Source of the DNA: Nitrosococcus wardiae
GTDB lineage: Bacteria; Pseudomonadota; Gammaproteobacteria; Nitrosococcales; Nitrosococcaceae
Assembly: GCF_004421105.1 (NCBI RefSeq)
Contig: NZ_CP038033.1
Span: 3,367,659 to 3,431,658 of the forward strand
DNA length: 64,000 bases
Direction: 5' to 3'
Every line of letters begins with the position of its first letter. Position 1 is the stretch's first letter. The position numbers and the translations under genes are program-made. The notes under the pieces are model-generated. The model was not told the origin of the DNA. It worked only from the letters and a program-made list of their open reading frames with translations, and did no database searches. Shown here piece by piece: positions 32,817 to 38,117 of the stretch.

Positions 32817-33263
32817 ATGAAAATACCCGCGACCAGACAAGATATCGAAATTCTACTCGTAGAAGATAACCCTGGTGATGTGCGCTTGACCCAGGAAGCC
32901 CTCAAAGAGGCCAAAATGCAGAACCAGCTCCATGTGGTGGAAGATGGGGTTGCGGCAATGGAATTCTTACACCAAGAAGGTCAATATGCCGATGTGCCCC
33001 GCCCGGATCTCATTCTGCTGGATTTGAATCTACCGAAAAAAGACGGTCGCGAAGTCCTCCAAGAAATCAAACAGGACCCTGTCCTTAAACGGATTCCCGT
33101 GGTGGTCCTTACCACTTCCCGAGATGAGGAGGACATTTTAAGAAGCTATGATCTACACGCCAATTGTTATGTCACCAAACCGGTAGAGCTAGACGAGTTT
33201 ATTCAGATTGTGAGAAGCATCGATAACTTCTGGCTCACTATTGTCAGGCTGCCGGGTGAATAA
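32817..33263 (+). CDS. Single-domain response regulator, Rcp1-like
   Basis: The 148-residue stand-alone receiver has the acidic pair in [11 protein letters not shown], phospho-Asp in [13 protein letters not shown], Thr in [11 protein letters not shown] and Lys in YVTKPVEL. These are the marks of the Rcp1/CheY-like receivers that accept phosphate from phytochrome-type kinases. It lies 9 nt after the kinase gene and is its likely partner. With no output domain it must act by binding another protein. An intact version of the stub at 12783-12881. Confidence 0.93.
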
Positions 33264-33389
33264 GTTTTTAGAACGGCCTTGAAGAAGTGCAGGGACGCAC
33301 GACGCCCCCCTAGCGACGATGCGAAACGCAGTGGCGCACGGAGCCGGAGCGCGAGGGCCGCATGACATGCTGTTGTTGCCGTGTTTGGC

Positions 33390-34673
33390 TCAGACAGCCG
33401 AAAGCCCGTAGTCATAACCATCCCCTCTTTGGATGAGTTTGAAATGCTTCCAGTTGGCCGAAATCTTCCCGGCCTTGGCCTTGATATCAAAAGTGCCGTT
33501 AGCCCGGATGCTTGCCAGTATTCCGGTGTGTATACCCTCATACTTGCCTCTTGGTTGCGAGAGCCTTACTAGATCACCCGTTTGAAATCCCTTCACCCGT
33601 TTGCACCTCCCAGCTTTCCCTCGTGGAAAGCCATATTTATCGGTGAGCACAACTTGCCGTGTGCCGCGACCAGTGGCTTTGATATGTAGCGCCCGATGCC
33701 CTTTGGTGATTGTCACTTGCTCACCGCTTTCGCCAACACACGCGGCATCAATCCAATGGTCTTTGGCGTAGCCCTGAGAAATCCTGTTTTTCTTGGTGCG
33801 TCCACCCCTCCAAAAAGAAGTCGGCAGCCCTATTGACTGAATAACACCCCCAATGGCGTAGCGGGTAGCATTGACCGCGGCGGCATCTTTTAAAGGCCGA
33901 TTGGCTTTGGATTGGATCTGAGGATACCCAAACTCGGTGGCCGTTTTACTGTTCTTCTTTTGATTGCACGGAGTACAGGCCAGGGTTAGGTTAGATACCC
34001 GGTGACTGCCACCTCTAGATCTAGGAACGATGTGTTCAACTTCCCGAGGGGCGCTATTCTTGCCACAGTAGGCGCACTTTCTACCCCATTTCTCCAGCAG
34101 ATATTCGCGCACCTCATAGCCTTGCAGTTCCCCTTGTTGATACTCAACGCCGTTAATTTCAGGGTTCTGAATTTTCTGCATATCAAAGCGTACGGTTTCA
34201 ATGTGGCACTCAGAAATGGGCGCTCTATCGAGTAAGCGGTTAAACCATGTCGAAACATTCTCAACCCGGGATCGCAGTGAAGGCGCTAGCCAGCCTTTGG
34301 GGCGGGTTCTATTCAAAAACCGGGGCGCACGGTAGCGGGTCTTTCTGCCTCTGCGGCCTCGGCGCAATAGGCGCCGCTTCTCTAACCTATCGCGTACAGA
34401 CTGCCCTCTGTGCTCCAAATTTGCACCCCATAACACCACGCGCCCCTGTTGAGGGAAATTGCCCACTAATGCCAGTCCTGTGGTTTTGCTGCCTGGGTCA
34501 ACCTTGAATCCAACCGGCTGAGGGCTAGGGTCTACGCGATATTTCAATATGATGGTAAACGGCTGCATTCGATACACGGCAGCCTTCCCCTCCCGCAACA
34601 ACCGCCTAGCTCTTGAGGGTCTGCACGGCATCAGTGGTGTTTTATCAGTGTCTAATATAAAAACGCTATTCAC
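33390..34673 (-). CDS. iscB: IscB RNA-guided endonuclease (OMEGA nuclease), solitary
   Basis: The protein (427 residues from GTG 34673) has the full IscB layout: N-terminal PLMP domain (KTPLMPCRPSRARRLL), RuvC-I (KVDPGSKTTGLA), arginine-rich bridge helix (RRLLRRGRRGRK), RuvC-II (HIETVRFD), an HNH domain (CAYCGKN, VEHIVPRSRGG, TPCNQKK) and RuvC-III (DHWIDAACV). All catalytic residues appear present. IscB cuts double-stranded DNA guided by an omega-RNA and is the ancestor of Cas9. A TTG at 34709 would add 12 residues; GTG fits the family start better. No IS200/IS605 TnpA is nearby, so it is a stand-alone copy. The C-terminal KRVKGFQTGD region follows the RuvC-III end as in other IscBs. Confidence 0.92.
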   Translation of the reverse strand: MNSVFILDTDKTPLMPCRPSRARRLLREGKAAVYRMQPFTIILKYRVDPSPQPVGFKVDPGSKTTGLALVGNFPQQGRVVLWGANLEHRGQSVRDRLEKRRLLRRGRRGRKTRYRAPRFLNRTRPKGWLAPSLRSRVENVSTWFNRLLDRAPISECHIETVRFDMQKIQNPEINGVEYQQGELQGYEVREYLLEKWGRKCAYCGKNSAPREVEHIVPRSRGGSHRVSNLTLACTPCNQKKNSKTATEFGYPQIQSKANRPLKDAAAVNATRYAIGGVIQSIGLPTSFWRGGRTKKNRISQGYAKDHWIDAACVGESGEQVTITKGHRALHIKATGRGTRQVVLTDKYGFPRGKAGRCKRVKGFQTGDLVRLSQPRGKYEGIHTGILASIRANGTFDIKAKAGKISANWKHFKLIQRGDGYDYGLSAV

Positions 34674-34935
34674 TTTCGTGACTCCGAAAAGTAAGGGTTC
34701 TCTCGCCAATGTTTGAAGGGTCGTTCAGTCTCGACATTCGCTCGTGTGTCGCTCCGTAGTTCATTGCCTTTGACCTCGTGCCTGGGGCTGAGAAATGCAC
34801 CCCAAGGTGAGTCGCTTTCGCTTCATCCTCAAACGTAGCCCCAAAGGGCTGAGGCTGGTTGAGCCAACCAACTCATTCGAAAAGTTCAGGACGAACTTAG
34901 AGAATTAGTTAGGCGACGACTCAACGATCGCGCCA
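34674..34935 (-). ncRNA. Putative omega-RNA for IscB
   Basis: The 315-bp gap between iscB and putA holds no ORF of note but several perfect stems on the iscB strand: AAGTTC/GAACTT (34882-34887 with 34893-34898), GGTTG/CAACC (34857-34861 with 34865-34869), AGCCC/GGGCT (34837-34841 with 34846-34850) and a larger CCTGGGG/CCCCAAGG fold near 34781-34806. IscB omega-RNAs lie directly upstream of the gene with the guide at the 5' end; here the guide would lie near 34900-34935 or just beyond. Exact ends need comparison with other copies. Confidence 0.7.
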
Positions 34936-34988
34936 GAACCACCCCGAGAGGAGATTTTTCACTTAAATTCGGCTCAATCAACCCTCTC

Positions 34989-37900
34989 TTACTCCCGCAG
35001 GGACAAAAGATCGGTATTTCCTCCCACCGCCGCCGTATTAATACTCGTCGAGCGCTCAGTGGCAAAGCGCAATAGATAATGGGGGCCACCGGCCTTAGGC
35101 CCCGTCCCCGAAAGGCCCTCTCCCCCAAAGGGTTGCACGCCTACTACGGCACCGATCATATTGCGATTGACATAAACGTTGCCCACTTGAACTCGGTTTT
35201 GGATATAACGAACCGTTTCATCCACTCGGCTATGAATTCCCAGGGTTAAGCCATATCCGGTCCGGTTAATGGAATCAATCACTTCATTGAGCTGCTGGGA
35301 TGAATAGCGGATAACATGCAAAATAGGGCCAAAAACCTCACCCGTCAGTTGGGTCAAACTCTCCAGTTCATAGATCCGAGGCGCAAAGAAACAACCCTTT
35401 GGAGTATCTTCAGGCAACGATAAGCGGTAAAGCAAGCGCGCTTCCTGGTCCATTCGTTGGCAGTGGGCTTCGAGGCGTGCTTTGGCTTGCTCATCGATGA
35501 GAGGACCTATATCGGTTTCAATCCGTCCCGGATCACCTATTCTTAGCTCCTCCATGGCGCCCATCAGCATTTCTAATATAAGATCGGCCACCTCTTCTTG
35601 GAGAAACAACACCCGCAAGGCCGAACAGCGTTGACCGGCACTATTGAAGGCTGAACTCATGACATCCACCACCACCTGTTCCGGCAAGGCGGAGCTGTCC
35701 ACGATCATGGCATTCTGGCCGCCGGTCTCGGCAATGAGCGGCACTATGGGCCCCTCACGCTCCGCCAATATCCGGTTAATGGCATGGGCAGTCTCGGTTG
35801 AACCCGTAAAGGCAACGCCACTAACCCGGGGATCGGCCACTAAAGCCTGGCCTACTGCCGGACCTTCCCCTGGCAGGAGGTGTAAAACCCGGGATGGAAC
35901 ACCCGCCTCATGTAACCATTGGATCACCAACGCTGCGATTAGGGAGGTCTGCTCAGCAGGTTTGGCAATCACTGTATTTCCCGCCGCCAATGCAGCCGCC
36001 ACCTGGCCGGTGAAAATGGCCAGAGGAAAATTCCAAGGACTGATACAAACAAATACACCGCGCCCATGAAGGGCTAACTCATTATATTCACCCGTGGGCC
36101 CTGGTAATCTCTTGGGTATAGCAAAGTGCCGACGGGCCTCAGCAGCATAATAACGACACGCATCCACCGCCTCTCGCACTTCAGAGAGGGAGTCGGGAAT
36201 ACTCCTGCCCCCTTCGCGAATACACAAGGCCATCAGCTCAACTTGGCGCTCCTCAAGTAAATTAGCCGCCTGTTCCAAGCACTCGGCCCGCCCGAGAACA
36301 GAGGTGGCATCCCAGCCAGGGGCAACGGAGGTGGCTTCAGCCAAGGCTTCAGTAGTAGCTTTGTGATCGGCTTCAATCACCGTCCCCACTACTCGCCGCC
36401 GATCACTAGGATCTCGCACCACTCGCCCATTGCCCTCTCTCGCCTCGCCACTGATAAGAGGCGACGCCTGCCTTTGCCGCCCCATGGCAGAGGCAAGTTC
36501 AGCCATTAAGCGATCCAGGGTGGTCGGATCATTTAGATTAATTCCCAGAGAATTACGCCGGAATCTTCCATAAAGATGAGGTGGCAAGGGAATCCGGGGG
36601 TGGGGTATAGAGGACAGGGTACGAACGTGCTTAGCCGGATCGGCCACCATCTGCTCAAGGGGTACTTTTTCATCCTCAATCCGGTTGACAAAAGAGGTAT
36701 TAGCGCCATTTTCCAGCAGCCGCCGCACCAGGTAAGGTAAAAGGTCTTTATAACCTCCCACGGGGGCATAAACTCGGCAAGGAACCTGAATTCCTTGTTC
36801 TCGCAAGGCGTTATAAAGGAGTTCTCCCATGCCATGTAAGCGCTGAAATTCGAAACCTTGCTGCTCCCCCGCCACCTCCAATACCCAGGCCACAGTATGG
36901 GCATTATGGGAGGCCAATTGAGGATATAAGGCATCGCGGGCATTGAGCAGTCGGCGGGCCAGAGCAAGGAAAGAAATATCTGTATTGGCCTTTCGGGTAA
37001 AAACCGGGTAGCCTGGTAATCCCTGTTCCTGGGCGCGCTTGATCTCCGTATCCCAGTAGGCGCCTTTGACCAAACGCACCGGAATACGCCGACCTTCCTT
37101 TCGGGCGAGATCCAGCAAATACTCCAAGGCTGGTACTGCCCGCTTTTGGTAAGCTTGTAGCGCCAGACCGAAGCCTTCCCATTTCTTTAGGGAGGGATCG
37201 CGGAATACAGCTTCAAAGACATCTAGCATCAATTCCAAACGATCACTCTCTTCCGCATCCAAGGTTAACCCGACGCCGGCAGCACAAGCTTCACGGGCTA
37301 ACGACAACACCCGAGGTACCAACTCCGCTTGCACCCTTTTTCGTTGGGAAAAAGTATAACGGGGGTGTAGCGCCGAAAGCTTGACAGAAATTCCTACCGA
37401 CTCCCGGCCCTGTTGATCTTGTCCTACCTGAGTCAGGGCGGCAATTCCATGCCGATAGGCACGATAATATTGCTCAACACGGGCTTGAGTGAGGGCAACT
37501 TCACCCAACATATCAAAGGAGTAGCGTTCATTCCCCCGACGCTGCGTCAGGGCGTCCTCAATGGTAGGCGCGATAATGAATTGGCCACTAATAATGCGCA
37601 TGGCTTGCCGGAGGGCTAACCGCACTAAGGATTCCCCTCCACGCTTCACCAAACGTTTAAGAACGCCCCTGCCATCATCAAGCAAGCGCGTTTCCAAACG
37701 CACCAGACGCCCAGTTAGCATCAACCCCCAGGTAGAGGCATTGACAAAGAGCGAATGGCTATGTCCAAGATGCTTGCTCCACTCGCCCTTGGTGAGTTTG
37801 TCATGGATAAGCCGGTCCGCATTCTCATCATCGGGGATCCGCAATAGGGCCTCGGCCAAGCACATAAGTACGACCCCTTCCTCGGTGGAGAGGTCATATT

Positions 37901-38117
37901 CATGGAGAAAAGCATCTAATCCTCCATGGCGATGACGCCTCTCGCGCACTAACTGCACCCATTGACTTGCCCGCTGCTTCACTCGCTCACTGGCCTCCTG
38001 GTCCAACTCCGCCTCACGCAATAGGGACTGAATCCAGACGGTTTCATCGGCGAGATAGGCCGCGCTGATAGCCGCCCGGGGCGAGCTTGGGGAGGGTAAT
38101 TCAATACCAGAAATCAT
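34989..38117 (-). CDS. putA: Bifunctional proline dehydrogenase / glutamate-semialdehyde dehydrogenase PutA
   Basis: PutA oxidises proline to pyrroline-5-carboxylate (FAD, N-terminal) and then glutamate semialdehyde to glutamate (NAD, C-terminal). The 1042-residue chain shows the proline dehydrogenase barrel (about 90-480; VSVKLSALHPRY, RLVKGAYWD, ATHNAHT-like ASHNAHT) and the aldehyde dehydrogenase domain (about 530-1010; ISPWNFPLAIF, catalytic Cys in NSAGQRCSALRV, Glu in IAETGGQNAM). It lacks the N-terminal ribbon-helix-helix DNA-binding domain of E. coli PutA, so it is not its own repressor. Neighbouring arginase and ornithine aminotransferase genes feed the same semialdehyde. Confidence 0.97.
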   Translation of the reverse strand: MISGIELPSPSSPRAAISAAYLADETVWIQSLLREAELDQEASERVKQRASQWVQLVRERRHRHGGLDAFLHEYDLSTEEGVVLMCLAEALLRIPDDENADRLIHDKLTKGEWSKHLGHSHSLFVNASTWGLMLTGRLVRLETRLLDDGRGVLKRLVKRGGESLVRLALRQAMRIISGQFIIAPTIEDALTQRRGNERYSFDMLGEVALTQARVEQYYRAYRHGIAALTQVGQDQQGRESVGISVKLSALHPRYTFSQRKRVQAELVPRVLSLAREACAAGVGLTLDAEESDRLELMLDVFEAVFRDPSLKKWEGFGLALQAYQKRAVPALEYLLDLARKEGRRIPVRLVKGAYWDTEIKRAQEQGLPGYPVFTRKANTDISFLALARRLLNARDALYPQLASHNAHTVAWVLEVAGEQQGFEFQRLHGMGELLYNALREQGIQVPCRVYAPVGGYKDLLPYLVRRLLENGANTSFVNRIEDEKVPLEQMVADPAKHVRTLSSIPHPRIPLPPHLYGRFRRNSLGINLNDPTTLDRLMAELASAMGRQRQASPLISGEAREGNGRVVRDPSDRRRVVGTVIEADHKATTEALAEATSVAPGWDATSVLGRAECLEQAANLLEERQVELMALCIREGGRSIPDSLSEVREAVDACRYYAAEARRHFAIPKRLPGPTGEYNELALHGRGVFVCISPWNFPLAIFTGQVAAALAAGNTVIAKPAEQTSLIAALVIQWLHEAGVPSRVLHLLPGEGPAVGQALVADPRVSGVAFTGSTETAHAINRILAEREGPIVPLIAETGGQNAMIVDSSALPEQVVVDVMSSAFNSAGQRCSALRVLFLQEEVADLILEMLMGAMEELRIGDPGRIETDIGPLIDEQAKARLEAHCQRMDQEARLLYRLSLPEDTPKGCFFAPRIYELESLTQLTGEVFGPILHVIRYSSQQLNEVIDSINRTGYGLTLGIHSRVDETVRYIQNRVQVGNVYVNRNMIGAVVGVQPFGGEGLSGTGPKAGGPHYLLRFATERSTSINTAAVGGNTDLLSLRE

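What the first reader, a model, noticed from the sequence alone, without database searches (positions are those of the whole stretch)
33390..34988. Solitary IscB with a structured omega-RNA region and unknown guide
A complete IscB, with all RuvC and HNH motifs, stands between core genes without a TnpA. Four perfect stems upstream suggest an omega-RNA. Whether the guide still targets an empty insertion site, or has been taken over for another use, is open.
Basis: partly seen in the sequence, partly recalled or inferred. Interest (0 to 1): 0.75.

Follow-up and report, generated by a model that had tools for sequence, protein, structure and literature searches.

The report
Ordinary mobile IscB element, guide located
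This looks like an intact copy of a small mobile DNA element that carries a Cas9-like nuclease (IscB) and its guide RNA; sister copies show where the element begins and ends and which bases most likely act as its guide, and nothing found suggests that the host has taken it over.

Summary
A complete iscB (33390-34673, minus; NCBIfam IscB 429 bits, cut-off 175) lies between putA and a response-regulator gene, with no Y1 transposase row within 0.8 Mb. It is not an isolated, domesticated gene. It belongs to an element, about 33281-34925, with copies at other sites in two of three other Nitrosococcus genomes; this site is empty in all three. Aligned copies fix the left end at 34925, which is also the 5' end of the omegaRNA (a HEARO match below Rfam's threshold, supported by covariation), and the right end at 33281. 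The guide should be the flank, rc(34926-34941). Flanks after the right end suggest a TAM, NNRG (G at +4 in 9 of 9). Clean empty sites confirm the boundaries for 2 of 7 other copies tested. The window's own empty site was not found: the 43 nt that hold its guide are not in the relatives. Its guide matches only its own locus exactly. dN/dS is 0.07-0.11. Side result: the TAM-side end resembles the left end of TnpB elements in these genomes. New member of a known kind.

The parts
33390..34673 (-). iscB, 427 aa, GTG start
34691..34925 (-). omegaRNA scaffold (HEARO-like); 5' end 34925 from aligned copies, 3' end 34691 from the HEARO match
34926..34941 (-). predicted 16-nt guide, TGGTTCTGGCGCGATC (flank of the element; the length of 16 is recalled)
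   Evidence: position; own empty site not found
34926..34968 (-). 43-nt left flank not found at the orthologous site of the three relatives nor elsewhere in the four genomes at E 1e-3
33281..33389 (-). right end of the element, ending ..CTTC; boundary uncertain by up to 2 bases
33277..33280 (-). AAGG, the TAM-side flank (candidate TAM NNRG)
32817..33263 (+). neighbour: response-regulator gene
34989..38117 (-). neighbour: putA (proline and aldehyde dehydrogenase domains)

Best explanation
A non-autonomous IS200/IS605-type element that carries only iscB and its omegaRNA. Shown here: the two ends, insertion without target duplication for two sister copies, host flank in the guide position, a protein under purifying selection, a conserved RNA. 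Inferred: the omegaRNA is transcribed from the flank into the element, so its 5' part is host sequence (the guide). Inferred from known systems (recalled): a TnpA encoded elsewhere excises the element precisely; the rejoined donor site then holds target plus TAM (NNRG); IscB cuts it, and repair from the sister copy restores the element. In place, the guide is followed by GTTG, which has T at +3 and does not fit NNRG, so the filled site would be spared.
For: Protein family and kept catalytic positions. Copies at other sites in two relatives, site empty in three of three. 13 of 13 left ends printed start GTTGAGTCGTCGC with 12 distinct flanks. Gapless junctions in sister genomes for 2 of 7 other copies. 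HEARO match and, in three D. latus copies, a HEARO match that starts exactly at the multi-copy left end. Covariation. G at +4 after the right end in 9 of 9 copies with a readable end, purine at +3 in 8 of 9. dN/dS 0.07-0.11 against seven homologues.
Against: The own empty site was not found in the other 5 family genomes. HEARO is below its gathering score here, and none of the 6 genus loci tested reached it. Fold energy is not special. Five of seven other copies gave no clean empty site. No TnpA with matching ends was identified. The TAM column was chosen after looking at the data. No expression or cleavage data.
Confidence: 0.85

Rival explanations
1. A domesticated IscB: the element has lost mobility and the guide now serves regulation or defence of the host.
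For: Single full copy in this genome, no TnpA beside it, strong purifying selection.
Against: Not at this site in any of the three relatives; multi-copy in G001; the guide position holds flank that differs from copy to copy; no target for the guide above control level. Purifying selection is equally seen among the multi-copy homologues.
Confidence: 0.05
2. A passenger already inactive: protein and RNA still look intact but are no longer expressed or mobile.
For: One full copy only; a 98-nt left-end relic elsewhere in the genome and many fragments in G001 show that copies decay. No expression data.
Against: Open frame, kept catalytic positions and low dN/dS.
Confidence: 0.1
3. The element arrived together with 43 nt of its former left flank, so the guide targets its former site and not the present one.
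For: 34926-34968 is absent from the orthologous site of the three relatives, and GCCG occurs on both sides of the extra segment.
Against: No other copy of the segment in the four genomes at E 1e-3; the two validated sister copies inserted precisely; an older insertion or deletions in the relatives explain it as well.
Confidence: 0.07

Closest known systems
IscB / OMEGA nuclease (NCBIfam NF040563; solved chains TbaIscB 9k30, HfmIscB 9k2z, OgeuIscB 7xht)
   Same: Domain order, catalytic positions, omegaRNA upstream of the gene with the guide at its 5' end
   Different: 427 aa against 496 in the OgeuIscB chain; candidate TAM NNRG, inferred from flanks only
HEARO RNA (Rfam RF02033)
   Same: Full-length match, E 1.3e-8
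   Different: 49.8 bits, below the gathering score of 83; P1 region differs, so the model start was misplaced by 57 nt
Solitary TnpB elements of the same genomes
   Same: Share the TAM-side end..CTTC with G at +4
   Different: They encode TnpB (two examples confirmed by Pfam), which reads away from that end

Membership tests
IscB (OMEGA nuclease) | RuvC, RRXRR and HNH match to the family model above the curated cut-off | tested here: met
   429.1 bits, cut-off 175; Pfam RRXRR and HNH
IscB (OMEGA nuclease) | Catalytic positions kept | tested here: met
   D59, E159, H214, H306, D309 align with OgeuIscB; labels recalled
IscB (OMEGA nuclease) | RNA-guided DNA cleavage | not testable with these tools
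   needs an experiment
HEARO RNA RF02033 | Match at or above the gathering score | tested here: not met
   49.8 bits against 83; 0 at gathering. 11 of 20 related loci reach it, none of the 6 from this genus. Filed as HEARO-like.
HEARO RNA RF02033 | Conserved paired structure next to the gene | tested here: met
   9 pairs changed on both sides, shuffles 1.9, 0 of 500 as high; two of 11 helices poorly kept, 85.7% and 73.8%
IS200/IS605-type element | Defined ends and insertion without target duplication | tested here: met
   Ends from copies; gapless empty sites for 2 of 7 other copies, not for this one
IS200/IS605-type element | Y1 transposase in the element or shown to act on it | tested here: not met
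   None in the element; no partner found among the 20 of 36 Y1 rows compared. Only 'non-autonomous, by inference' is claimed.
Domesticated IscB | Fixed orthologous position with a kept guide | tested here: not met
   Site empty in 3 of 3 genus relatives; flanks in the guide position differ

The most novel reading that the evidence does not exclude
In this genus IscB elements and solitary TnpB elements are built on the same TAM-side end, so that one trans-acting transposase with one target motif feeds two nuclease classes of opposite guide polarity: the IscB TAM (NNRG, 3' of the target) and the motif before the TnpB left end (CNTT, 5' of the target) would be the two strands of one insertion motif.
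Probability: 0.5. Interest if true: 0.35.

Novelty: new member of a known kind. Interest (0 to 1): 0.25.

Why it matters
It largely answers the question that the finding left open: aligning sister copies shows where the guide must lie, and it is flank, not a kept spacer. It gives a testable guide, a testable TAM and a boundary correction (the HEARO model alone misplaces the 5' end by 57 nt here). The end shared by IscB and TnpB elements offers a natural pair for testing one transposase on both.

Tried and rejected
Guide targets elsewhere. The 16-mer with up to 2 mismatches gave 13 rows in the 4 genus genomes, the own locus included; the reversed control also gave 13. Four of the rows have 1 mismatch (two in the own genome, one each in G001 and G003); the control's split by mismatches is not shown. 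In the own genome the two sites are followed by ACCG and CCCA: neither fits NNRG, though one of the nine iscB copies has C at +3 as well (TACG). One of them lies at the same coding sequence as the G001 row. Treated as chance.

A TnpA with the same ends. 20 of the 36 Y1 rows had a locus and were compared with both ends: only short weak matches. Ten wider Y1 regions were compared too; two hold an end like the iscB right end. In L206 it lies before a second tnpB gene; in L205 it lies about 2.7 kb from the Y1 gene and its context was not worked out. No partner identified.

The right end as a REP-like repeat. 37 copies outside iscB elements were examined (35 new loci, plus L090 and L093, fetched first). 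16 of 37 have a TnpB-like N-terminus within 500 nt reading away from the end, found by a motif search without a control. The other 21 remain unexplained. For the flank count 29 of 37 had a readable CCTTC end.

Fold energy as evidence for the RNA: rejected, z -0.40.

Literature. Searches: (Nitrosococcus with IscB: 0 papers). Seen: passages and the whole of section 9 of PMC9755519; passages of PMC12477157 and PMC11870625. Not held: Altae-Tran 2021 and Meers 2023, whose content is recalled, and an identifier given from memory for a third paper, which may have been wrong. No structure prediction was run.

Full report
What is there. On the minus strand, 33390-34673 encodes a 427-aa IscB. It scores 429.1 bits on the NCBIfam IscB model (cut-off 175), hits Pfam RRXRR and HNH and aligns with solved IscB chains; in the OgeuIscB alignment D59, E159, H214, H306 and D309 are kept. 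The neighbours are putA and a response-regulator gene, convergent. The six Y1_Tnp rows of the genome all lie more than 0.8 Mb away, also if the contig is circular.

Where it comes from. The first 8000 bases of a plasmid contig of each of the three other genus genomes match Nitrosococcus halophilus Nc 4 (G001), N. oceani ATCC 19707 (G002) and N. watsonii C-113 (G003) at 100%, so the window is from a Nitrosococcus.

It is a mobile element. In the 4 genus genomes the protein gives 22 rows: 2 in the own genome (one of them only an HNH match), 16 in G001 (six full-length at 85-89%, one at 52%, two rows of one split copy, seven fragments or weak rows), 2 weak ones in G002, and 2 in G003 (one full copy at 82%, one weak). 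The orthologous site is empty in all three relatives. The 13 left ends printed all begin GTTGAGTCGTCGC and have 12 distinct flanks before it; two rows share a flank and are a duplication. The copies with a readable right end stop at ..CTTC. The element is thus 33281-34925, uncertain by up to 2 bases because both sides of the junction end in TC.

Empty sites. Seven other copies were tested with joined flanks. Two have a site that aligns without gap across the junction: the G003 copy against N. oceani over all 120 bases (and without gap at the junction, though diverged after it, against the other two genomes), and the G001 copy at 769744 against the window's own genome. Two (L011, L102) have a partly matching site that is not clean; three (L004, L012, L013) find only themselves. 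For the window's copy no empty site was found in the other 5 family genomes: the right flank continues in G001, but the 43 nt left of the element (34926-34968) are missing in G001, and the short intergenic stretches of G002 and G003 show nothing like them. The guide of this copy therefore rests on the rule shown by other copies. This is the weakest point.

RNA and guide. HEARO matches over its full length at E 1.3e-8 but with 49.8 bits, below the gathering score of 83; at gathering strength the window has no match. Of 20 related loci, 11 reach the threshold, none of the 6 from this genus. In three D. latus copies the HEARO match starts exactly at the multi-copy left end. In the window the model start was put at 34868, within an inner inverted repeat; the copies show 34925, where GTTGAG can pair with CTCAAC. 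On 12 rows, 7 of them distinct, the window's MFE structure has 96.0% of cells paired and 9 pairs changed on both sides (1.9 in shuffles, 0 of 500 as high; 0-2 when slid), with two of 11 helices poorly kept. The structure came from one of these rows, which favours it. Energy alone is unremarkable. The guide is then rc(34926-34941), TGGTTCTGGCGCGATC; its length is recalled. It has no other exact match in the four genomes, and rows with up to 2 mismatches equal the reversed control, 13 and 13.

TAM. After the right end, 9 of 9 genus iscB copies with a readable end have G at +4 and 8 of 9 a purine at +3. The column was picked after looking; a rough chance for such a column is 1.7e-4. Left out: the copy at 927252, whose right end is divergent, and fragments without a right end. 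In 25 rows of the distant D. latus elements, one of them with a poorly matched end, the flank is A-rich instead. GTTG, which follows the guide in place, does not fit NNRG.

Selection. dN/dS between the window's gene and seven homologues is 0.07-0.11. Near-identical copies within G001 give ratios that are not usable.

Mechanism. From IS200/IS605 work, recalled and not held (Altae-Tran 2021, Meers 2023): TnpA excises such elements precisely, and the nuclease cuts the rejoined donor site so that the element is restored from a sister copy. PMC11870625 (passages) describes this retention role for TnpB. PMC9755519 (section 9) says that only a few HEARO/IscB genes are found with TnpA, so a lone iscB is the usual state.

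Shared end with TnpB. The right end has relatives outside iscB elements in all four genomes. Of 37 such copies examined, 16 lie within 500 nt of a TnpB-like N-terminus that reads away; two examples were confirmed as TnpB by Pfam. Of 29 with a readable end, 26 have G at +4, 25 A at +2 and 21 A at +1. That one TnpA moves both kinds is inference; recalled work on Geobacillus reports such a case.

Verdict. It is a new member of a known kind.

Noticed in passing
G000:C1:3326293-3326390 (L086 494-591): A 98-nt left-end relic in the same genome, identical to window 34925-34828, with another flank.
   Followed up: partly
L127-L161, L090, L093; examples L092 1552-1648 and L206 4229-4296: Ends like the iscB right end outside iscB elements in all four genomes; 16 of 37 lie before a TnpB-like gene.
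   Followed up: partly
L010 (G001:C2:927049 and 928572): A palindrome, CCTGCCTGCAGCAGGCAGG, sits in a hairpin of the omegaRNA and again in the right end of the same iscB copy; with up to 1 mismatch it has 3 places in G001, 8 in G002, 4 in G003 and none in the window's genome, reversed control 0.
   Followed up: partly
L034-L055, L058, L059, L061, L063-L065: 28 of the 42 loci are from one Desulfobacter latus genome; some (L041, L065) look like internal-deletion derivatives.
   Followed up: no
L092 1403-1567: A small CopG-type (RHH_1) gene between the shared end and tnpB, divergent from tnpB.
   Followed up: no
34926-34968: 43 nt with no counterpart in the relatives, GCCG on both sides of the extra segment; origin unknown.
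   Followed up: partly
L103 1594-2970 (G001:C2:372596): A second iscB lineage in N. halophilus, 52% identical, open frame.
   Followed up: no
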